Assembly: GCA_016929465.1 (NCBI GenBank)
Contig: JAFGIT010000047.1
Span: 1 to 13,733, forward strand
Direction: 5' to 3'
DNA length: 13,733 nt
DNA from: JAFGIT01 sp016929465 [NCBI: Candidatus Coatesbacteria bacterium]
Lineage (GTDB): Bacteria > B130-G9
Below, one piece after another: positions 4,679 through 13,092 of this stretch (position 1 is its first letter; each line of letters begins with the position of its first letter). Under the pieces are notes generated by a model. That model saw nothing but the letters and a program-made list of their open reading frames with translations. It did not search any database and was not told the DNA's origin. The position numbers were made by a program, and so were the translations under genes.

Positions 4679-5908
4679 ATGATGGCCAGGGTCTTCAAAT
4701 TAGTCGCCATTCTATGCGCTTTGATGCTTACAGCATCCTGCTCAATTACTATCACCTGTGGCGATTCAGACCACGACGACGATGAACAGGTGTGCAAGGG
4801 ACGTCCCTGCAAGAAGGAGCAGCCATGCGACGAGAAGAGCGGGCCCCAGGCTGGGAAGAAGCCTGGACAGAAGGGGCTCTACGACCCGAAAACCGGGGCA
4901 TTTCTAGATTTCGACCTCAAGGAGCTGGAGAAGCGCGCGAGGGAGGCCTACGAGGCTGGCGAGTACGAAAAGGCCGCTCGCCTTTATTTGAATTTACTCA
5001 GACGGAATATCACCGATGGCGGCAACATCTACAATCTCGCTTGCTGCTATGGGCTTCTTGGCAAGCCAAAACTCGCCGCGAATTTCCTCGAGCGCGCATA
5101 TAAGGCGGGATTCAACGATGTCGAGTGGATAAAGTTCGATCCCGACTTCGAAAAGGTCAGGGACAGCGAGGAGTTCCAATCGACGATCGCCTGTTTAGAA
5201 GGGCAGGCGAAGAGGAAATCGGAGGGCGCTGGCAAACCGATATATATAAGCGCCGAGGCGGAGTTCCGGTGCCGCGTGATGCTCCCCGACGGCTTTGACC
5301 CGAATAAGACGTACCCACTTCTCGTGGGGCTGCATGGCTACGGGAGTGATCCCGAGAATTTTGCCGGGCTCTGGAAGCGCTTCGACAACCCGCAGTTCAT
5401 CTATGCGGTTCCCCAGGCTCCCTATCCCTATCTGCGGGGAAATGAGCAGGGCTACAGCTGGAGCGCCCCGCTTCCGGATGACGATCCGGCAGGCGAGCGG
5501 TCGAAGCTCGAATCCGAGGAATACGTCGCCAAGCTCGTCAAGCATCTGAAGAAAGAATACAAAGTCGGCGATACTTACCTGCTGGGCTTCTCGCAGGGGT
5601 GTGGGATGACCTATACAACGGGGATCAAGTACCATGAGCTCTTCAAGGGCCTGATATGCTTCGGGGGATGGTTCTCCAAGGATTGGCTCGTCGATAAGGC
5701 GGGCATCGACCTGAAGGAGATGAACGACCTGCGCGTCTTCATCGCTCACGGCAGCAAGGATACGCTGGTGAAGATCGAGGAAGGTGAGAAGGCCAAGGAT
5801 ATACTCAAGGAGTACGGCTACAACGTCACCTTCTACGTGTTCGATGGCGCGCACGCCGTCCCTGAGCAAGCATTGCGAGAGGCGCAGAGCTGGATGGGTC
5901 TGAATTAG
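4679..5908 (+). CDS. Lipoprotein: TPR-like segment fused to an alpha/beta-hydrolase (phospholipase/carboxylesterase type)
   Basis: The 409-residue product starts with a signal peptide ending in a lipobox-like LTASC, so Cys21 is the likely lipidated residue and the protein should be membrane-anchored outside the cytoplasm. Next comes an acidic, cysteine-containing linker (about 28-66), then a helical TPR-like segment (about 80-170, AYEAGEYEKAARLYLNLLRR and NLACCYGLLGKPKLAANFLE), then an alpha/beta-hydrolase domain (about 188-405). The catalytic triad is visible: Ser305 in GFSQG, Asp361 in HGSKD, and His392 in GAHAVP; the HGYGSDPEN loop (about 219-227) forms the oxyanion side. The relatives are esterases of the carboxylesterase/phospholipase 2 group. 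The substrate is unknown. Two ATGs follow each other; GGAGAGGA lies just before the first. It is monocistronic in appearance, with a small terminator-like hairpin after its stop. Confidence 0.82.
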   Translation: MMARVFKLVAILCALMLTASCSITITCGDSDHDDDEQVCKGRPCKKEQPCDEKSGPQAGKKPGQKGLYDPKTGAFLDFDLKELEKRAREAYEAGEYEKAARLYLNLLRRNITDGGNIYNLACCYGLLGKPKLAANFLERAYKAGFNDVEWIKFDPDFEKVRDSEEFQSTIACLEGQAKRKSEGAGKPIYISAEAEFRCRVMLPDGFDPNKTYPLLVGLHGYGSDPENFAGLWKRFDNPQFIYAVPQAPYPYLRGNEQGYSWSAPLPDDDPAGERSKLESEEYVAKLVKHLKKEYKVGDTYLLGFSQGCGMTYTTGIKYHELFKGLICFGGWFSKDWLVDKAGIDLKEMNDLRVFIAHGSKDTLVKIEEGEKAKDILKEYGYNVTFYVFDGAHAVPEQALREAQSWMGLN

Positions 5909-5984: not shown

Positions 5985-6458
5985 ATGGATTACCGATATG
6001 ACTCGCCTTGTGGGATTTACTGCGGTGCCTGCGGGATCCTGAAAGATCTCCGGGCGGGGCGACATGAAGAGCGTGCAAGGCAAATGAATATGCCACCAGA
6101 GGAGCTGAAGTGCGCGGGATGCAAGACGGATACGATAGCTGACTTCTGCGTAGGCTGCAAATTCCGAGACTGCACGAAGGAGAAGGGGATCGAGTTCTGC
6201 TTCGATTGCGATGAGTTCCCCTGCGCTGAGCTCGTCGCCTTCAGGAATGACAAATGGCCACACCACTCGACCGTTCTGAATAATCTCGATACAATAAAGG
6301 AAGAGGGGGTCGCGGAGTGGCTCGTGAGGCAGAAGAAGCGATGGAGCTGCCCCGAGTGCGGCGAGTCATTCACCTGGTATGAGAGCCAATGCGAAGCATG
6401 CGGCGCGACGCTATATGACTGCCGCAAAGAGGATGAGGACCTGAAGAGAGAGAGATAG
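5985..6458 (+). CDS. DUF3795 cysteine-rich protein with C-terminal zinc ribbon (copy 1)
   Basis: The protein has 157 residues. The N-terminal two thirds match DUF3795: CGIYCGACGI, a helix, CAGCKTD, FCVGCKFRDC and FCFDCDEFPC, ending in the typical LNNLDTIKEEGVAEWL helix. The C-terminus adds a CPECG...CEACG pair that looks like a zinc ribbon. The conserved cysteines suggest metal or Fe-S binding; no biochemical role is established for the family, which is common in anaerobes. The ATG is preceded by AGAGGG at a good distance. The next gene begins two bases after the stop and encodes a paralogue, so the two are co-transcribed and probably arose by tandem duplication. Confidence 0.86.
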   Translation: MDYRYDSPCGIYCGACGILKDLRAGRHEERARQMNMPPEELKCAGCKTDTIADFCVGCKFRDCTKEKGIEFCFDCDEFPCAELVAFRNDKWPHHSTVLNNLDTIKEEGVAEWLVRQKKRWSCPECGESFTWYESQCEACGATLYDCRKEDEDLKRER

Positions 6459-6460
6459 CA

Positions 6461-6946
6461 ATGAACAACGGCAGATACGACTCCTATTGCGGTATTTACT
6501 GCGGCGCTTGTGAGATCGTGCACGAGGAAAGGAACGGTCGCCTGAGTTCCTATGCTGAGACGGCCGGTGTCTCGCCGGACGAAATGTCATGCCATGGCTG
6601 CAAGAGCGATACGATTACGAAGTGTTGCAAAGAATGCGAAGTTAGAGCCTGCGCCATTTCGAAGGGATTCGCGACATGTGCTGAATGCGAGGAGGTTCCT
6701 TGCGAGCTCTTCGCCCCATTCAAGGTCGGAGGTTTTTACCCTCTCTACGTGCTGATGATGAACAACCTCGAGAACATCAAACACGCTGGAATCGAGGAAT
6801 GGCGAGAATCGCGACGAAAGCGATGGAAGTGTGAGGAGTGCGGAACGCCATCTTGGTGGTATCAGAAGGTTTGTGACAATTGCGGGGCGATGCTCGTCGA
6901 TTGCGAGGCGGAGGCCGACAAGATAGAGCGCCGCAATGAGAGTTGA
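6461..6946 (+). CDS. DUF3795 cysteine-rich protein with C-terminal zinc ribbon (copy 2)
   Basis: The 161-residue product is a clear paralogue of the preceding one with the same order of motifs: YCGIYCGACEI, CHGCKSDTI, KCCKECEVRAC, TCAECEEVPC, the NNLENIKHAGIEEW helix, and a C-terminal CEECG...CDNCG ribbon. The sequences have diverged outside the cysteine motifs, so the duplication is not recent. The differences are largest in the helix after the first motif and in the loop before the NNLE helix, which could mean different partners. The stop overlaps the proposed TTG start of the dehydrogenase by four bases, so the three genes 5985-8001 look like one operon. Confidence 0.86.
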   Translation: MNNGRYDSYCGIYCGACEIVHEERNGRLSSYAETAGVSPDEMSCHGCKSDTITKCCKECEVRACAISKGFATCAECEEVPCELFAPFKVGGFYPLYVLMMNNLENIKHAGIEEWRESRRKRWKCEECGTPSWWYQKVCDNCGAMLVDCEAEADKIERRNES

Positions 6947-8001
6947 GATATCGCTTGCAGACTGAAGATTTGAGCACTGCTCAGCGCGAGACGACCGTCC
7001 TCTTCATCTGGGAGCCGCCTGACAGGCTTCGCGAATACCTCGAGAACGGGCTCGAAGGCCTGCCAGGCATTAAGCTGGTCTATCCGCCCGATGTCGAGGA
7101 AGAGACACTGACTCGGCTCGCGCCGGATGCCGATATAATCATCGGCTGGAGACCCACGAAGGGCATTTTGGATGCAGCAGAGCGACTGAAGCTCTTCATC
7201 AATCCAGGGGCAGGGGTGCAGCATCTGATCGATCTCTTCCGGGAGCAGGCCGAAAGGCGGGACATCACCCTCGTGAACGGACACGGCAACTCCTACTTCA
7301 CGGCACAGCATGCGGTCGCAATGCTACTCGCCCTGACCAACAAGGTTATCCCACATCACAACTGGATGGTTCAGGGCCAATGGCGAAAAGGTGACAAGGA
7401 CGCGGTGACGATTCCCATGCGAGATAGAAGCGTGGGACTCCTGGGCTATGGCGCGGTCAACTCGAAGGTGCATCGCTTCCTCTCCGGCTTCGAAGTCGAA
7501 TTCCATGCCCTTAGAAGCGACTGGTCGAAGCTGGCCGAAGCGCCGCCAACTCATCTCGTTCAATATACTCCGGATCAGCTCGACGATTTCCTGAAAGCGA
7601 TCGACATCCTCATCGTCGCGCTACCAATGACTCCAAAGACCGACGGTTTGATCGGTGCCCGAGAGTTCGAGCTGCTCGGCCCTGACGGGCTATTTTTGAA
7701 CTTCGGCCGAGGAGGGGTGGTTGATGAGAAAAGCCTATATAATGCCCTGAAGGAGAAGGTAATCGCGGGCGCGGCGCTCGACGTCTGGTATAACTACACG
7801 CCCGTTGCCGACGAGGGCGGCAGGACCGCCCCGTACAACTACCCTTTCCACGAGCTCGACAACGTGGTCCTCTCACCCCACCGGGCCGCGTCGCCGTTCC
7901 GCGACCTGAAGCGCTGGGATGAGGTCATCGAGAACATCACCCGCTTCGCAAATGGCAGGACTGACTTTTTGAATGTGGTGGATATCGAGGCGGGATACTG
8001 A
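6943..8001 (+). CDS. D-isomer-specific 2-hydroxyacid dehydrogenase family protein
   Basis: The product has about 352 residues with the two-lobe structure of the family. The Rossmann motif VGLLGYGAVNSKV (about 164-176) binds NAD(P); Arg256 in FGRGGVVDE and His313 in LSPHRAA are the catalytic Arg and His positions. The third catalytic residue, normally Glu in DVFxxEP, is replaced: the sequence is DVWYNYTP, with Tyr285 at the expected place. Members reduce 2-keto acids or oxidise D-2-hydroxy acids. No ATG is available; the frame opens after a TGA at 6937 and the usable starts are TTG at 6943, 6955 or 6970, none with a strong ribosome site. The ATG at 6936 is in another frame and soon stops. The last 33 codons are repeated at 11136-11236 after the signalling module. 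Confidence 0.9.
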   Translation: MRYRLQTEDLSTAQRETTVLFIWEPPDRLREYLENGLEGLPGIKLVYPPDVEEETLTRLAPDADIIIGWRPTKGILDAAERLKLFINPGAGVQHLIDLFREQAERRDITLVNGHGNSYFTAQHAVAMLLALTNKVIPHHNWMVQGQWRKGDKDAVTIPMRDRSVGLLGYGAVNSKVHRFLSGFEVEFHALRSDWSKLAEAPPTHLVQYTPDQLDDFLKAIDILIVALPMTPKTDGLIGAREFELLGPDGLFLNFGRGGVVDEKSLYNALKEKVIAGAALDVWYNYTPVADEGGRTAPYNYPFHELDNVVLSPHRAASPFRDLKRWDEVIENITRFANGRTDFLNVVDIEAGY

Positions 8002-8039: not shown

Positions 8040-9983
8040 TTGAGCATGGAGCTCTTGCGATCATTCCCGATTGCGATATATGCTGATGTGCAGAGTCGTG
8101 AGATAATGGTCAAAAGGCCCCATGAGCAGGACGGAGAGATGCCAAAGAACGAAGACATGCGAAGCTGCTTCCTCGCGATGCAGTTCTCTCGAACGTCAAG
8201 AGAAATCAGAATTGCGGTTGAGAAAGGTGCAAGATCCGCTCATTTCGAGGTCATCTCTCTCGAAGATGCATCTTCATCAATGAGCCTGACTATTGAGCAG
8301 ACTGTCCTATCGGCTATTGCGGCGGCAGACTGCGTAATTGGCGATGTCTCTAAGCTGAATCCCAACGTATTTTTTGAGATGGGGATTGCTCGAGCCATGG
8401 GGAAACATGTTCTGCTAATTGCAGCTGACAGTGCAACCGGCGCAAGTGACTTAGAGATGGCCCAGGTAGAGCCGTTGAGGTATTCCGAAAGTAGAGATGG
8501 TCTCCTGAGGTTAACCAAAGATATAGAGCACTCCCTCAAAGAAATTCGACAATTCCCGCAATCTCAACAGACCATATCGCGATCTCAGGCCTCAATTCCC
8601 TTCTATATCGATTGGGATAGCCTAAGCGAGAGAGATGCCGAAAATCTCTGCAGAGAGCTTTTGTCCCAGATGGGCTTTAAGCGGCTCGAATGGGAGAAGG
8701 TATCTCCGGAAATTGACCTCGTTGCGGAGCTTAACAGAAAGGATCCTGACGGATTTGAATATCGAGAGCTATGGCTCATATCGATGGGGCTTAATGCGCC
8801 CCCAGATATGTTAATTGAGATGCTCTCCCATAAACCGGAATATTTGCTGGATCGCATTCTTCGATATTCAGATCGTTTAGAGCGAAGCATCTCTCGATAC
8901 GGGGAATCATCTATAACCTTGCTCCTTATTCTATCTCGGTCGGGACGCCATTCCGAGGAATTGGAGATGCTACGAAGGCGAATGGAGATGCGCCGATCAC
9001 GTTTTGAGAATCGCGGTCTGAATTTGCGCTTACGGATTTGGGATCAAGATTACATGACATCACTTGTTCATAGATTCCCAGGTATCGCATACAAGTATTT
9101 TTCAGATGAGGGTCGCATTCGCTCAAAGACAAGAAAGAGCTATGAGGAGCTGTATGGTGAGAATGTCGAATTGACAGCAAGGCAAGCATCCTTGATCAAA
9201 GAGCTAGAGGATGAGAAAAACAAGCGAGTGCGGGCTGAACGTGATGCGATATGGAAGGATATCTCATTTTCTGCTGCCCACAAGATAGGCAATCCGATAT
9301 TCGCGATTGAGACCGACCTGGATCCTCTGGCAAAAAGGATCAATGAGGACAGAAAGGCCGACGCAATAACAGTCCTGAAAAATATCCGGTCCGCTGTCGA
9401 GAAGGCGAAAGGATTCGTTGATCAGTTCAAGTCTCTTGCTAAAGCGCAGGAGATCAAGCTAATCCCCATGTTACTCAAGCCCATTCTGCAGGATGCCTGT
9501 AAGTTTGCAGAAGACAAGAAGGTGAATTGCTCTATCGTTTGTCCGGATGATCTGAGTATTCAGGGAGATCCAGAAAAATTGGCCGAGTGCTTTGATGAAT
9601 TGGCCGCAAATGCGACTCATTGGCTGAAGAAGAGACGGAAGAAGGAGATTTCGCTCGTGGCCATATCCCCTGCGCCTGAGCCTCTGCCCGATTTTTTGGA
9701 CTCGTCACAGAAATATGTTTTAATACACGTCGAAGACAATGGTCCCGGAGTGCAACGAGAGAACAAGAATCGCATATTCGACGCCTTTTTTACGACTCGG
9801 GAGCATGGGACTGGGCTGGGACTAGCGCTCGTTCGTCGAATCATCGATGGGCACAAGGGGGGAATTATGGAGGTTGGGGTACCAGGAAAGGGAGCGGACT
9901 TTGAGATATTTGTTCCTCTGAGTTCCGACAGCTCCCCGAAGGCAATGGAAAGACGCCCACAGAAGCGTTTGAGTGAGGGATAG
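8040..9983 (+). CDS. Histidine kinase with N-terminal deoxyribosyltransferase/TIR-like domain and a degenerate Mrr-like domain
   Basis: The 647-residue, apparently soluble protein has three parts. Residues about 41-170 follow the 'CFVIMPF' nucleotide-binding family related to nucleoside 2-deoxyribosyltransferase and TIR folds: CFLAMQF, then AADCVIGDVSK and NPNVFFEMGIARAMGK, with Glu113 at the catalytic-glutamate position. Residues about 190-345 (DWDSLSERDAENLCRELL, MGF, EIDLVAEL) resemble the Mrr restriction-endonuclease fold, but the strand that should carry the catalytic Lys reads ELWLISMG without one. A coiled coil (about 366-405) leads to a kinase core: His414 in AAHKIGNP, N-box Asn524 in ELAANA, G1 Asp566 in DNGPGV, and GTGLGL near 590. 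The TTG at 8040 has AGGA nine bases before it; the ATG at 8046 is an alternative. The stop lies 4 bp from the partner gene. Function as a sensor is inferred; the kinase core is certain. Confidence 0.86.
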   Translation: MSMELLRSFPIAIYADVQSREIMVKRPHEQDGEMPKNEDMRSCFLAMQFSRTSREIRIAVEKGARSAHFEVISLEDASSSMSLTIEQTVLSAIAAADCVIGDVSKLNPNVFFEMGIARAMGKHVLLIAADSATGASDLEMAQVEPLRYSESRDGLLRLTKDIEHSLKEIRQFPQSQQTISRSQASIPFYIDWDSLSERDAENLCRELLSQMGFKRLEWEKVSPEIDLVAELNRKDPDGFEYRELWLISMGLNAPPDMLIEMLSHKPEYLLDRILRYSDRLERSISRYGESSITLLLILSRSGRHSEELEMLRRRMEMRRSRFENRGLNLRLRIWDQDYMTSLVHRFPGIAYKYFSDEGRIRSKTRKSYEELYGENVELTARQASLIKELEDEKNKRVRAERDAIWKDISFSAAHKIGNPIFAIETDLDPLAKRINEDRKADAITVLKNIRSAVEKAKGFVDQFKSLAKAQEIKLIPMLLKPILQDACKFAEDKKVNCSIVCPDDLSIQGDPEKLAECFDELAANATHWLKKRRKKEISLVAISPAPEPLPDFLDSSQKYVLIHVEDNGPGVQRENKNRIFDAFFTTREHGTGLGLALVRRIIDGHKGGIMEVGVPGKGADFEIFVPLSSDSSPKAMERRPQKRLSEG

Positions 9984-9987
9984 AGAT

Positions 9988-11082
9988 ATGCCTGGGAGTG
10001 AAAGACCTGTAGTTCTGCTGATAGATGATGAGAAAGAGAATCTGGATTCGCTGAAGCGAGCGCTCGGGGATGAGAATCCCGCTTGGGAAATACTCACCGC
10101 CCAAAGTGAGAAAGAAGCGGAGGAAACGCTAAAGCGCCAGATCAGCGAAAAGAAGCCTGTCGAAGTTGTTCTCACTGACCTGGTTATGGATACCGAAGCA
10201 AGCGGAATGAATATTCTGCAAAAGGCGAGACAGCTGGACCCCCTAATCATGGCGATTCTGTTCACGGCAAAGGAAAAGAGCCTCGATCGATATGCCGCTT
10301 TTGATTGCGGCGCCTTTGATGTCGTTGAGAAGAACATCAGAGGAACAGCAGCGGCGCGTGAGATCAACATCAAGACTCGAGCAGCTTTACGATATCGAGA
10401 ATGGTCTCAGTGGATAAACTTCATGCGGAGGTATTTCGACCCCAAGGTCTTCAATGTCATTCAGCGCGATCCATCCTTGCTCGATATATCAGGGAAGACG
10501 ATTTCGATTGTCTTCTGGGATATCAGTGGATTCTCGAAGCTCTGTGAGTCCCTGAAAGCATATCCCAATTTGATATCTGGATTTCTCCAGGAGTTCTGTG
10601 AAGTAGGCGCGAAGACCATCTTCGAACATGGTGGCGTCCTGGATAAGTTCATTGGCGATGAGATAATGGCCCTCTTTGGAGTTCTCAATCACAAAGACGA
10701 TGGGGGCAAATTAGACGCAATTGCGGCAGCAAAAACCGCACAAACGATGCGTGGGAGATTCGCGGAGCTGCTCCCCAAATGGATCGACAGATGGAGTCTA
10801 TATGTGCCAGAGAAGATAGAGATTGGATTGAAGTGCGGCATTCACACCGGCGAGGTTCTCGTGGGCAATGTGGGTACCGACTTTAGAGACCAATTCACCG
10901 CTCTGGGACCCCCAGTCAATTTCGCAAGCAGACTAACCGACAGGGCCAAACCAGGTCAGATACTCGTATCGCAATCGACAGAGAAGCGCATAGCGAAGAA
11001 TATAAAATCGGCGCCAGCTGGGGAGATCTCTGATGTCAAGAACATACCTGGCACATTCCTGCTATTCGAGGTCGTCTCTTAA
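9988..11082 (+). CDS. Response regulator with class III adenylate/guanylate cyclase output domain
   Basis: The 364-residue product joins a receiver domain (about 6-125) to a class III nucleotide cyclase domain (about 168-364). The receiver is complete: acidic pair Asp13-Asp14, phosphoacceptor Asp64 in VLTDLVM, Thr93 and Lys115. In the cyclase, metal-binding Asp178 (FWDISGFS) and Asp224 (FIGDEIMALFG), the base-contacting Lys220, and transition-state Asn311 and Arg315 (VNFASRL) are present. The motif usually reading G-D-x-V-N is G-P-P-V-N, so the base-selecting Asp is a Pro (residue 308). Phosphorylation by the kinase next door presumably switches the cyclase on. Catalysis looks possible; the nucleotide made is open. 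I chose the ATG at 9988, with AGGG ten bases upstream; a GTG at 9973 would overlap the kinase gene. No effector gene for the cyclic nucleotide is seen nearby. Confidence 0.92.
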   Translation: MPGSERPVVLLIDDEKENLDSLKRALGDENPAWEILTAQSEKEAEETLKRQISEKKPVEVVLTDLVMDTEASGMNILQKARQLDPLIMAILFTAKEKSLDRYAAFDCGAFDVVEKNIRGTAAAREINIKTRAALRYREWSQWINFMRRYFDPKVFNVIQRDPSLLDISGKTISIVFWDISGFSKLCESLKAYPNLISGFLQEFCEVGAKTIFEHGGVLDKFIGDEIMALFGVLNHKDDGGKLDAIAAAKTAQTMRGRFAELLPKWIDRWSLYVPEKIEIGLKCGIHTGEVLVGNVGTDFRDQFTALGPPVNFASRLTDRAKPGQILVSQSTEKRIAKNIKSAPAGEISDVKNIPGTFLLFEVVS

Positions 11083-11115: not shown

Positions 11116-11145
11116 TACTGAACCGTCAATCTTAGGCGACCTAAG
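11116..11145. repeat. Junction sequences: 10-bp repeat and a palindrome
   Basis: TACTGAACCG at 11116-11125 repeats the bases at 7996-8005, which span the dehydrogenase stop codon. Six bases further on is CTTAGG-CGA-CCTAAG (11131-11145), a perfect 6-bp inverted repeat with a 3-base loop. The homology to the dehydrogenase 3' end begins inside it, at 11136. Such a join of repeat and palindrome fits a recombination scar, but 10 bp and 6 bp matches can also arise by chance. Confidence 0.5.
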
Positions 11146-11236
11146 GCGCTGGGATGAGGTCATAGAGAACATCACCCGCTTCGCGAATGGCAGGACTGAC
11201 TTTTTGAATGTGGTGGACCTAAAGGCGGGGTATTAG
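11136..11236 (+). pseudogene. 3' fragment of a dehydrogenase gene (right copy of direct repeat)
   Basis: This piece encodes the last 33 residues of a 2-hydroxyacid dehydrogenase (DLRRWDEVIENITRF... ending AGY and a TAG stop), and nothing before 11136 continues the protein. Compared with the end of the complete gene at 7901-8001, most changes are in third codon positions and only three residues differ (Lys to Arg, Ile to Leu, Glu to Lys). The copies therefore diverged while both were coding, so this is a remnant of a related gene and not a fresh duplication. No start signal serves it; it is presumably not translated. The GAF-protein gene follows after 41 bp, which may be the original neighbour of the dehydrogenase. 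Confidence 0.85.
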
Positions 11237-11277: not shown

Positions 11278-11991
11278 ATGAACGAAATGCCAGAGATTCA
11301 CGATATCGCTCTACCGGAGGCTATAGTCGGCCAGTGGCAAAAGCTGGTCGATCTCATCGCGAGGGTCATGAAAGTGCCGGCAGCCTTCGTCATGAGGGCT
11401 CAGCGGCCGGAGCTGGAAGTGTACAGGGCAAGCGAGAATCCAGAGAATCCAATCCCAGAGGGGACGCGGATGGATCTGGCTGGCCTTTACTGCGAGCGAG
11501 TGATGGATACCAAGGAGAGGCTCTTTGTCCCGAACGCGCTCGAGGATGAGGAGTGGAGGGATAAGCCAGGTGCAAAGGCGGGGCTTATCTCATATCTCGG
11601 CTTCCCTCTCGAATGGCCCAATGGCGAAGTATTCGGGACGATATGCACTCTCGATACGAAGGAAAGGGCACAGTCCAATACCTCCGAGGACTTATTGAGC
11701 CAATTCAGGCAGCTCGCAGAGGCACATCTCGCACTCGCCTATCAGAATAAAGCACTCGACATCGAGAAAGTCAGGCTCGAGAAGGCCCTCAATGAGATCA
11801 AGACGCTGCGCGGGCTCGTGCCGATCTGCGCCTGCTGTAAGAAGGTGCGAGATGACACCGGCTTCTGGCAATCCGTGGAGGTCTATGTGGGTGACCGGAC
11901 CGAAGCCGATTTCACCCACGGCGTCTGTCCCGAGTGCGAGAAGAAGCTTTATCCCCCCGAGCCGGGGGACGAGGACTACGAGGACGACTAA
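11278..11991 (+). CDS. GAF-domain protein with C-terminal CxxC...HGxCPxC motif
   Basis: The 237-residue protein begins with a GAF domain (about 12-155): the LISYLGFPLEWPNGEVFGTICTLD segment is the typical core. A helical linker or coiled coil (about 155-180, ALDIEKVRLEKALNEIKTLR) leads to a C-terminal module, LVPICACCKKVRDDTGFW, then VYVGDRTEADFTHGVCPECEKKLYP. The Cys184/Cys187 pair, His214, Cys217 and Cys220 are probably metal ligands. This tail is common at the end of bacterial PAS/GAF sensor proteins and kinases; its function is not known to me. No kinase or output domain is present, so the protein would sense a small molecule or redox state and signal through a partner. AGGGG lies at a good distance before the ATG. 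The acidic C-terminus (EPGDEDYEDD) is notable. Confidence 0.86.
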   Translation: MNEMPEIHDIALPEAIVGQWQKLVDLIARVMKVPAAFVMRAQRPELEVYRASENPENPIPEGTRMDLAGLYCERVMDTKERLFVPNALEDEEWRDKPGAKAGLISYLGFPLEWPNGEVFGTICTLDTKERAQSNTSEDLLSQFRQLAEAHLALAYQNKALDIEKVRLEKALNEIKTLRGLVPICACCKKVRDDTGFWQSVEVYVGDRTEADFTHGVCPECEKKLYPPEPGDEDYEDD

Positions 11992-12027: not shown

Positions 12028-12600
12028 ATGGCTATGCTGCCCACGCTTCGCACCGAGAGGCTTGTTCTAAGGCCATTTGAGCTGACCGACGCGCTCGAGG
12101 TCCAGCGACTCGCCGGAGACCGACAAGTCGCAGCAACAACAGTCAACATTCCCCACCCATACAAGGATGGAATTGCGGAGGCCTGGATAGAGCGCCACGC
12201 GGAGGCTCTCGACAAGGGCGAAGCCGTGCACCTCGCTATTTGTCTGCGGGATGACGGGCGACTCGTTGGCGCAATCGCCCTCTTTCTGAGACTGGAACAC
12301 AACCGCGCAGAGATAGGGTATTGGGTGGGCAAGCCCTATTGGGGAAATGGATATTGCACTGAAGCAGCGGGGGAGATTATCCGCTACGGCTTCGAGGAGC
12401 TCGAGCTGAGCCGAATCTTCGCGGAATACATGGCCGGCAACGTGGCCTCTGGCCGCGTCCTGGAGAAGATCGGTATGAAATACGAGGGCCGTATGAGGCA
12501 GCACATGATCAAGTGGGACCTCCCTCAGGATATGATCGTTTATGGCATCCTGAAGGAGGATTTCGCCGAAATGCAGAGGGCTGCGGAGCAGAGGCATTAG
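12028..12600 (+). CDS. GNAT-family N-acetyltransferase (RimJ/RimL-like)
   Basis: The 190-residue product matches the RimJ-type acetyltransferase fold: N-terminal LRTERLVLRPFELTDA, then IGYWVGKPYWGNGYCTEAA (about 97-114), which is the acetyl-CoA-binding motif region, followed by GFEELELSRIFAEYMAGNVASGRVLEKIGM, the family's conserved final helix. It would acetylate an amino group on a protein N-terminus, amino acid or small molecule; the substrate is not readable. The ATG at 12028 has GGGAG about 12 bases upstream, and a second ATG two codons later is an alternative. It follows the GAF gene by 36 bp on the same strand. Confidence 0.92.
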   Translation: MAMLPTLRTERLVLRPFELTDALEVQRLAGDRQVAATTVNIPHPYKDGIAEAWIERHAEALDKGEAVHLAICLRDDGRLVGAIALFLRLEHNRAEIGYWVGKPYWGNGYCTEAAGEIIRYGFEELELSRIFAEYMAGNVASGRVLEKIGMKYEGRMRQHMIKWDLPQDMIVYGILKEDFAEMQRAAEQRH

Positions 12601-12608
12601 GTGGTTTA

Positions 12609-13038
12609 TTGACTGAAATAACGAGAACCCGACCTCTTTCCTATTCACTCTTCTCCCCCGGCTACGAGGGCGTCTATACTGGCCGGAAGACGGGCGAGAC
12701 TCCAGCGGACGGTTTGGGACCCTGCATCTTCGAGGGGGATGGGGACGGGAACGAGATCATGCGGTGGTCTCTCTGGAGTTGGACTGGCACGCTCGATGAG
12801 AGGGACTGGGATGACGACATCAAGCACATCAACCTGATGAAGAAGGCTTCGGGCCGCTGAGCGACGAAGTGCGCAAGATAAGGGCACATATCGCGAGCCC
12901 CAAGGAGGAAAGTGGCTCGCGGCTTGTCTGTGGAAAAACCTGATGCAGATTCCTGCCGGCCCTGGTAGATTTCTGCACAAAGAGCTGATCGAGCTGTCGG
13001 AGAAGGCGGGAATCGGTCTGCGCACTTGGATTGATTAG
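12609..13038 (+). pseudogene. Unidentified gene broken by two single-base frameshifts (or sequencing errors)
   Basis: Protein-like sequence runs through three frames in order. Frame one starts near the TTG at 12609 (AGGTGG just upstream) and runs to a TGA at 12858-12860 (ends ...DIKHINLMKKASGR). From about 12840 the sense continues in another frame (EEGFGPLSDEVRKIRAHIASPKE), and from about 12904 in a third (GGKWLAACLWKNLMQIPAG, then ...ELIELSEKAGIGLRTWID) to a TAG at 13036-13038. Each step equals the loss of one base. Restoring both would give a protein of about 143 residues, rich in Trp, Gly and acidic residues in its first half. I do not recognise the family. The breaks lie near GAAGAAG and CCCCAAGG, where read errors are plausible. 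Without a repair check, either decay or an assembly error fits. Confidence 0.6.
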
Positions 13039-13092
13039 GGATTAGCTGGCGGTTGGCAGTCAACGGAAATCCAACCAGAATTTGGAGGAAAT

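What the first reader, a model, noticed from the sequence alone, without database searches (positions are those of the whole stretch)
8040..11082. Two-gene phosphorelay joining a TIR/deoxyribosyltransferase-like sensor to a class III cyclase
Seen: a kinase with His414, N, G1 and G2 boxes preceded by a 'CFVIMPF/NPNVFFEMG' domain and an Mrr-like domain; four bases later, a receiver-cyclase. Known: such nucleotide-binding domains and Mrr folds are frequent in defence and stress proteins, and class III cyclases make second messengers. Inferred: the kinase senses a nucleotide-like ligand or DNA state and raises a cyclic-nucleotide signal. This architecture is not one I know as a named system.
Basis: partly seen in the sequence, partly recalled or inferred. 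Interest (0 to 1): 0.75.

Follow-up and report, generated by a model that had tools for sequence, protein, structure and literature searches.

The report
Rare mobile kinase–cyclase signalling pair
Two adjacent bacterial genes form a rare, apparently mobile signalling unit in which a sensor kinase built from what look like two retired enzyme folds (a nucleotide-handling fold and a DNA-cutting fold) probably switches on a partner enzyme that makes the messenger cyclic AMP.

Summary
The pair is real. The kinase's N-terminus has a DNPH1/deoxyribosyltransferase fold (best Z 14.8). Its middle part is most like a PD-(D/E)XK (Mrr/FokI) fold, at moderate confidence. One scan found six near-full-length N-terminal relatives (39-49% identity) in Armatimonadota, Planctomycetota and Acidobacteriota; in all five whose contig continues, the same receiver–cyclase follows. 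It is rare: four searches of 1,465 genomes found the whole architecture only in the four seed genomes. The deoxyribosyltransferase Glu is kept in 68 of 68 other domains but 4 of 7 here, and no (E/Q)xK stands at the expected nuclease position in 7 of 7. Two relatives lack the pair at this site, and a 97-nt duplicated gene end flanks it, so it was probably inserted. Best reading: a mobile two-component system sensing a nucleotide or nucleic acid and answering with cAMP. Ligand and any defence role are unproven.

The parts
8139..9983 (+).
   Evidence: start by alignment with 6 homologues
8151..8558 (+). DNPH1 / nucleoside 2-deoxyribosyltransferase (DrHyd/TIR-like) domain, residues 5-140; catalytic-Glu position E81
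   Evidence: Pfam PF05014 E 7.4e-6, 26.5 bits against a cut-off of 28.8 (7 of 7 N-termini match at E up to 0.1); fold Z 14.8 to 8rpt; Glu not conserved in the family
8601..9104 (+). PD-(D/E)XK (Mrr/FokI-like) fold domain, residues 155-322, predicted catalytically dead
   Evidence: Model pLDDT 77 with alpha-beta-beta-beta-alpha-beta order; restriction-type nucleases prevail among the top matches, all Z under 8; Mrr_cat sub-threshold; hhalign 85.6% over 42 columns
9105..9254 (+). Conserved linker/coiled-coil to the kinase core, residues 323-372
   Evidence: Mean pairwise identity 64%
9255..9488 (+). DHp helices with phospho-acceptor His381 (codon 9279-9281), H-box AAHKIGNP
   Evidence: Pfam HisKA found in 3 of 8 rows of the family alignment
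9489..9938 (+). ATP-binding (HATPase_c) domain with N, G1, F and G2 boxes
9988..11082 (+). Receiver-class III nucleotidyl cyclase, 364 aa from ATG 9988
10009..10347 (+). Receiver domain; phospho-acceptor Asp64 (codon 10177-10179), Thr93, Lys115 invariant in 6 of 6
10492..11067 (+). Class III cyclase catalytic domain; metal Asp178 and Asp224, base-specifying Lys220 and Asp301, Asn311, Arg315
   Evidence: residue roles recalled
7901..7997 (+). Upstream copy of a 97-nt direct repeat: 3' end of the D-2-hydroxyacid dehydrogenase gene (6943-8001)
11136..11232 (+). Downstream orphan copy of the same gene end, 91% identical

Best explanation
This is a rare, apparently mobile, stand-alone two-component module. 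A soluble sensor histidine kinase carries a DNPH1/deoxyribosyltransferase-like domain and a nuclease-like (PD-(D/E)XK) domain that no longer need catalysis; they most likely bind a nucleotide or nucleic-acid cue. Binding changes the linker helices, the kinase phosphorylates itself on His381, the phosphate passes to Asp64 of the partner receiver, and the class III cyclase domain then makes cAMP. Shown by sequence: both genes and their motifs, conserved pairing in relatives from three phyla, non-conservation of both enzyme signatures, and absence of the pair at the same site in two related genomes. Inferred: the ligand class, cognate phosphotransfer, cAMP as product, and transfer as a cassette.
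For: Pair conserved in 5 of 5 relatives whose contig extends beyond the kinase (the sixth, L070, ends inside the kinase gene). Module cyclases form one group against the 5 other class III cyclases of this genome (support 99/100, 11 rows). Rec-cyclase linker and receiver are the most conserved parts (80% and 70% mean identity), the outermost sensor domain the least (31%). DNPH1 fold Z 14.8, rmsd 2.4, 127 residues. The catalytic Glu is present in 68 of 68 other such domains but in 4 of 7 here, with Ala twice and Asp once (after moving three mislabelled rows out of the family tally). No (E/Q)xK at the end of strand beta-3 in 7 of 7. Lys220 invariant in 6 of 6 and Asp301 in 5 of 6 (Glu in L073), the pair that usually specifies ATP (recalled). 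G001 and G002 have the dehydrogenase without the pair behind it, and a 97-nt repeat flanks it here. Module G+C lies below both flanks in 6 of 6 loci.
Against: No ligand, activity or phosphotransfer was measured. The nuclease-like fold rests on a pLDDT 77 model with best Z 7.1 and Foldseek E of 0.011 or worse, with GTPases such as EF-Tu also in Foldseek's list, so it could be a chance arrangement; a conserved E-Y-R/K stands at the start of strand beta-3. The window's own first domain keeps its catalytic Glu. The H-box has Lys right after His in 6 of 6, where 19 pattern matches in 18 of 26 other kinase loci have Glu 17, Gln 1 and Ala 1, so autokinase activity may be weak or unusual. The low G+C of the module is partly typical of signalling genes: 7 other kinases of this genome have GC3 0.59-0.66 against 0.55 here, and one other cyclase (0.56) is as low as this one (0.57). 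None of the five other modules tested shows a flanking repeat like this one (best: 35 nt at 77% in L072). One of the six genomes searched (that of L069) showed no cyclic-nucleotide-binding domain.
Confidence: 0.6

Rival explanations
1. A Pycsar-like anti-phage alarm: the cyclase makes cUMP or cCMP and a TIR-type protein acts downstream.
For: PADLOC PycC model PDLC00734 matches the cyclase at E 3.5e-22. The kinase's first domain matches PADLOC 'Effector TIR' PDLC00733 in 6 of 8 alignment rows, best E 2e-7, though the window itself only at 0.038.
Against: All 5 other class III cyclases of the genome hit PycC models nearly as well (best E of each 9e-22 to 1e-18, against 2.6e-22 here), so that match is non-specific. 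Base-selecting residues are the usual Lys/Asp (recalled). No effector gene adjoins the pair in the window, and the neighbouring proteins scanned in the window and relatives are mostly metabolic, transport or housekeeping types.
Confidence: 0.08
2. The first domain is an active nucleosidase or NADase whose reaction itself is the signal.
For: The window copy keeps Glu81 and Asp64; the fold is that of DNPH1 and TIR enzymes.
Against: The catalytic Glu is Ala in L071 and L073 and Asp in L074, although the pair is conserved there (L074's kinase frame is broken); 68 of 68 domains outside the family keep it.
Confidence: 0.12
3. The middle domain is a working nuclease switched on by the kinase.
For: Restriction-endonuclease-like fold and a conserved Asp before strand beta-2; a conserved E-Y-R/K at the start of strand beta-3.
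Against: At the expected place of the second and third catalytic residues the 7 sequences have Ser/Ala and Gly/His (register inferred); it sits between sensor and kinase core, a signal-transmitting place.
Confidence: 0.05
4. The kinase acts mainly as a phosphatase of its partner (Lys instead of Glu after His), so the ligand would keep cyclase activity low until it leaves.
For: HK(I/L)GNP in 6 of 6 against Glu in 17 of 19 other H-box matches; the Asn four residues after His is kept.
Against: N, G1 and G2 boxes are intact, which a pure phosphatase would not need (inference).
Confidence: 0.15

Closest known systems
CyaC-type phosphorelay adenylate cyclases (cyanobacteria; Kasahara and Ohmori 1999, seen only as a reference entry in PMC1183210)
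   Same: Autophosphorylation followed by phosphotransfer activates an adenylate cyclase (by its title)
   Different: CyaC is one hybrid protein (recalled); here two genes, and the sensor domains are a deoxyribosyltransferase-like and a nuclease-like fold
[quoted passage not shown]
   Same: Fold of residues 5-140 (Z 14.8); the class is described there as binding or processing nucleotides
   Different: Fused to a histidine kinase; catalytic Glu not conserved in the family
Mrr-type and other PD-(D/E)XK nucleases (Avs4 N-terminal part, AspBHI, MspJI, FokI)
   Same: Predicted strand order, and moderate fold matches
   Different: Catalytic E/Q-x-K missing at the expected place; used as part of a sensor
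Pycsar (PMC11224242, passages)
   Same: A class III cyclase, and a TIR-like domain somewhere in the system
   Different: No adjacent PycTIR or PycTM effector seen; control by phosphotransfer; usual purine-specifying residues (recalled)
Conflict systems that combine cNMP cyclases with REase, TIR or DRHyd domains (PMC7159879, passages)
   Same: The same kinds of domain meet in one system
   Different: Those are vWA/MoxR/VMAP-type systems, and that paper found no histidine kinases among the vWA-associated effectors

Membership tests
Two-component system (histidine kinase + response regulator) | HATPase domain with N/G1/G2 boxes and phospho-acceptor His | tested here: met
   His381, N-box Asn, G1 Asp and G2 GTGLGLAL kept in 6 of 6 (G1 reads DTGPG in L074). 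Pfam HisKA found in only 3 of 8 rows
Two-component system (histidine kinase + response regulator) | Cognate receiver with phospho-acceptor Asp, Thr and Lys | tested here: met
   Asp64, Thr93, Lys115 invariant in 6 of 6; adjacent gene in 5 of 5 testable relatives. Acidic-pocket Asp13 is Gly in L074
Two-component system (histidine kinase + response regulator) | Phosphotransfer between the two proteins | not testable with these tools
   Needs purified proteins
Class III adenylate cyclase | Two metal Asp, transition-state Asn and Arg, Lys + Asp/Thr for adenine | tested here: met
   D178, K220, D224, N311, R315 invariant in 6 of 6; D301 in 5 of 6 (Glu in L073). Residue roles recalled
Nucleoside 2-deoxyribosyltransferase / DNPH1 superfamily (fold) | Fold and sequence similarity | tested here: met
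   Z 14.8, rmsd 2.4, 127 residues aligned; PF05014 in 7 of 7 N-termini at E up to 0.1, the window's own score just under the curated cut-off
Nucleoside 2-deoxyribosyltransferase / DNPH1 superfamily (enzyme) | Conserved catalytic Glu | tested here: not met
   As a family: E in 4, A in 2, D in 1 of 7 (the window copy has E); 68 of 68 others keep E
Mrr / PD-(D/E)XK nuclease (fold) | Core alpha-beta-beta-beta-alpha-beta fold | tested here: inconclusive
   Best Z 7.1; 7 of the top 10 rows are restriction- or defence-type nucleases (the Avs4 part by recall), all under Z 8; Pfam E 0.012 at best; hhalign 85.6% over 42 columns
Mrr / PD-(D/E)XK nuclease (enzyme) | D...(D/E/Q)xK catalytic motif | tested here: not met
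   Asp kept 7 of 7; beta-3 end reads S/A-x-G/H in 7 of 7; register inferred from antiparallel beta-2/beta-3; an E-Y-R/K at the start of beta-3 is noted
Pycsar | Adjacent cyclic-pyrimidine receptor (PycTIR/PycTM) | tested here: not met
   Neither immediate neighbour of the window pair matches PADLOC at E up to 1e-5; Pfam calls them a 2-hydroxyacid dehydrogenase and a GAF protein
Pycsar | Pyrimidine-selective active site | tested here: inconclusive
   By my own position mapping, the place of AnPycC F109 is Gly/Glu here, while the F and K positions match AnPycC and ordinary cyclases alike

The most novel reading that the evidence does not exclude
A phosphotransfer-based alarm for foreign or damaged nucleic acid: a histidine kinase that uses a retired nucleotide-hydrolase fold and a retired restriction-enzyme fold to detect invader DNA or abnormal nucleotides and answers with cAMP. 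It would be a two-component counterpart of CBASS, Pycsar or Thoeris, travelling between phyla as a two-gene cassette.
Probability: 0.2. Interest if true: 0.8.

Novelty: new variant of a known kind. Interest (0 to 1): 0.52.

Why it matters
Familiar sensor kinases use PAS, GAF or periplasmic domains (recalled). One whose sensor is a pair of pseudo-enzymes from families used in nucleotide immunity and DNA restriction would link two-component signalling to nucleotide or DNA sensing, and would give a simple, portable two-gene system with a measurable cAMP output. The pairing across three phyla, with rare and scattered occurrence, makes it testable and suggests transfer as a unit.

Tried and rejected
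Pycsar membership: the strong PADLOC score was tested against the genome's 5 other class III cyclases and found non-specific. Phage or plasmid carriage: no record in phages or plasmids matched the middle domain or 80% of the N-terminus; two viral-contig scans gave no relative, and a scan with the cyclase gave 15 loci of class III cyclases at 26-34% identity. Defence island: not seen among the proteins scanned (10 in each; Lon protease beside L074 hits BrxL, DolB and IetA models through shared domains). A general insertion signature: no comparable flanking repeat in the five other modules within 1,500 nt on each side (736 nt downstream in L071). Structured RNA: no Rfam match at gathering score. 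Promoter-like sites at chance level, terminator-like sites 6 against 2.3 expected with sd 2.1. Low GC3 as proof of transfer: weakened by the control. Co-evolution of kinase and cyclase by pairwise identity: rho 0.49, p 0.15, uninformative. Sequence search of solved structures: no match for the N-terminus better than E 0.19 nor for the middle domain better than E 0.32. Matches below Z 8 for the middle domain are read as a fold hint only. One search used a frame one base off for the downstream repeat and was replaced. In one search, hits with domain E-value of 1e-8 or more and duplicate sequences were dropped; three rows (L087-L089) were mislabelled as family by a name prefix and are counted here among the others. 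For the Mrr profile I used 15 of the 33 matches. Rarity figures depend on thresholds (E 1e-3 with one protein; 1e-12; 1e-20), on a first look of which only the best candidates were scored, and some genomes may be counted in more than one of the four searches.
Full report
What is there. The window holds a kinase frame 8040-9983 and a receiver–cyclase frame 9973-11082. Pfam gives HATPase_c (5.3e-16) and Nuc_deoxyrib_tr (7.9e-6, 26.4 bits against a cut-off of 28.8) for the first, and Response_reg (7.6e-14) and Guanylate_cyc (4e-15) for the second. Alignment with homologues places the kinase start most likely at ATG 8139. The second gene then begins at ATG 9988, 4 nt after the first stop. The quoted CFVIMPF reads CFLAMQF; NPNVFFEMG is correct.

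Relatives. One scan of 84,980 species genomes with the N-terminal 354 residues found 10 loci, 6 of which match nearly the whole query at 39-49% identity: Armatimonadetes (L069), Planctomycetaceae (L070), Planctomycetota (L071), Acidobacteria (L072, L073) and Blastocatellia (L074). The scan needs exact short peptides, so 6 is a lower bound. In all 5 whose contig goes on, a receiver–cyclase 63-72% identical to the window's follows the kinase; the sixth contig ends within the kinase gene. Searching the family profile in 396 genomes from the phylum of L072, 392 from that of L071 and 291 from that of L069 found the full architecture only in the seed genome of each set; all other listed hits there cover the first domain only. 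Among 386 relatives of the window's own genome, itself included, only the window itself has it. Thresholds and overlaps are told under Tried and rejected. The module cyclases group together against the 5 other class III cyclases of this genome (support 99/100).

Sensor domains. A model of residues 1-354 (pLDDT 71) matches DNPH1 and deoxyribosyltransferases over residues 5-140 (best Z 14.8, rmsd 2.4, 127 residues); Foldseek ranks TIR-STING first, over the whole model and with poor rmsd. The catalytic Glu is present in 68 of 68 other domains collected here, but in the kinase family it is Glu in 4, Ala in 2 and Asp in 1 of 7. The window copy itself keeps Glu. A model of the middle region (pLDDT 77) has the order helix-strand-strand-strand-helices-strand. 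Its best matches are mostly restriction-type nucleases: Avs4 N-terminal part Z 7.1, AspBHI 5.6, MspJI 5.5, FokI 5.3, but also an RNA polymerase subunit (5.5) and the YqgP N-terminal domain (5.2); Foldseek gives E 0.011 or worse and also lists GTPases. Pfam Mrr_cat is the most frequent weak hit (4 of 8 rows, best 0.012), and a profile comparison with 15 Mrr_cat domains gives 85.6% over 42 columns up to just past the first catalytic Asp. Strands 2 and 3 being antiparallel, the other two catalytic residues should lie at the end of strand 3, where the 7 sequences read S/A-x-G/H. I therefore read it as a dead nuclease fold, with the fold itself at moderate confidence. A conserved E-Y-R/K at the start of strand 3 is the one contrary motif I saw.

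Signal path. His381, the N, G1 and G2 boxes, receiver Asp64/Thr93/Lys115 and cyclase Asp178/Lys220/Asp224/Asn311/Arg315 are conserved in 6 of 6; Asp301 is Glu in L073, and L074 has Gly in the acidic pocket and a variant G1 box. Lys220 plus Asp301 is the pair usual for ATP (recalled), so cAMP is the likely product. The H-box has Lys after His in 6 of 6, unlike 19 pattern matches in 18 of 26 other kinase loci (Glu 17, Gln 1, Ala 1); its effect on kinase activity is unknown. The window's genome (86% complete) has 6 class III cyclases and 1 cyclic-nucleotide-binding domain, not adjacent to the pair; such a domain was found in 5 of 6 module-bearing genomes searched.

Mobility. A 97-nt direct repeat, 91% identical, lies at the 3' end of the upstream dehydrogenase gene and again behind the cyclase. 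Two genomes of the same family have the dehydrogenase (78-79% identical protein) without the pair behind it: in G002 an acetyltransferase follows directly, the relative of the gene at 12028 here, and in G001 the gene that matches 12600-13035 here; the third, G003, shows no close dehydrogenase (best 32%). The two repeat copies differ at 13 of 102 aligned bases, 8 of them third positions, and in 10 of 33 sense codons, 6 synonymous. This fits an imported allele of the gene end better than a decaying duplicate, on few sites. Module G+C is lower than both flanks in 6 of 6 loci, and GC3 is lower than in every neighbouring gene tested. The control with other signalling genes of this genome weakens this: the kinase part is lowest of 8, the cyclase domain second lowest of 6. 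No integrase lies in the cassette, and no similar repeat flanks the other five modules, so the mechanism of insertion is unknown.

Defence? PycC models match all 6 class III cyclases of the genome. Of the 10 neighbouring proteins scanned in the window and five relatives, only Lon protease hit a defence model, through shared domains; by Pfam the neighbours in the relatives are an ABC transporter, glycosyl- and mannosyltransferases, aspartate-kinase-like, amidohydrolase, Lon and others. TIR/DrHyd/SLOG domains are described as nucleotide binders or enzymes, and some SLOG domains as non-catalytic sensors (PMC9503650, passages), which fits the sensor reading; cNMP cyclases, REase and DRHyd domains do meet in predicted conflict systems (PMC7159879, passages), which keeps the bold reading open. 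The architecture was not found in print (open-licence PMC papers only; listings, plus passages of PMC7159879, PMC9503650, PMC11224242, PMC9239204 and PMC1183210).

Verdict. A real, rare, conserved two-gene signalling module; a new sensor architecture on a known kind of system. Mechanism inferred, not measured.

Noticed in passing
7901-7997 and 11136-11232: A 97-nt direct repeat: an orphan second copy of the dehydrogenase gene end behind the cyclase, running in frame to a stop codon.
   Followed up: yes
12600-13060: Fragments in more than one frame matching a 430-aa gene that is intact in G001 (L067 3213-4505): apparently a decayed gene in this genome.
   Followed up: no
11278-11991: GAF-domain protein with a Cys-rich C-terminus between the pair and the acetyltransferase; absent between dehydrogenase and acetyltransferase in G002.
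   Followed up: partly
5985-6458 and 6461-6946: Two tandem DUF3795 genes with Cys-rich, zinc-ribbon-like C-termini.
   Followed up: no
L074 around 5250-5285: The kinase gene of the Blastocatellia relative is broken by a frameshift (real or a sequencing error) while its cyclase gene is open.
   Followed up: no
window kinase H-box 9273-9296 and relatives: Lys directly after the phospho-acceptor His in 6 of 6 family members, where 17 of 19 other H-box matches have Glu.
   Followed up: partly
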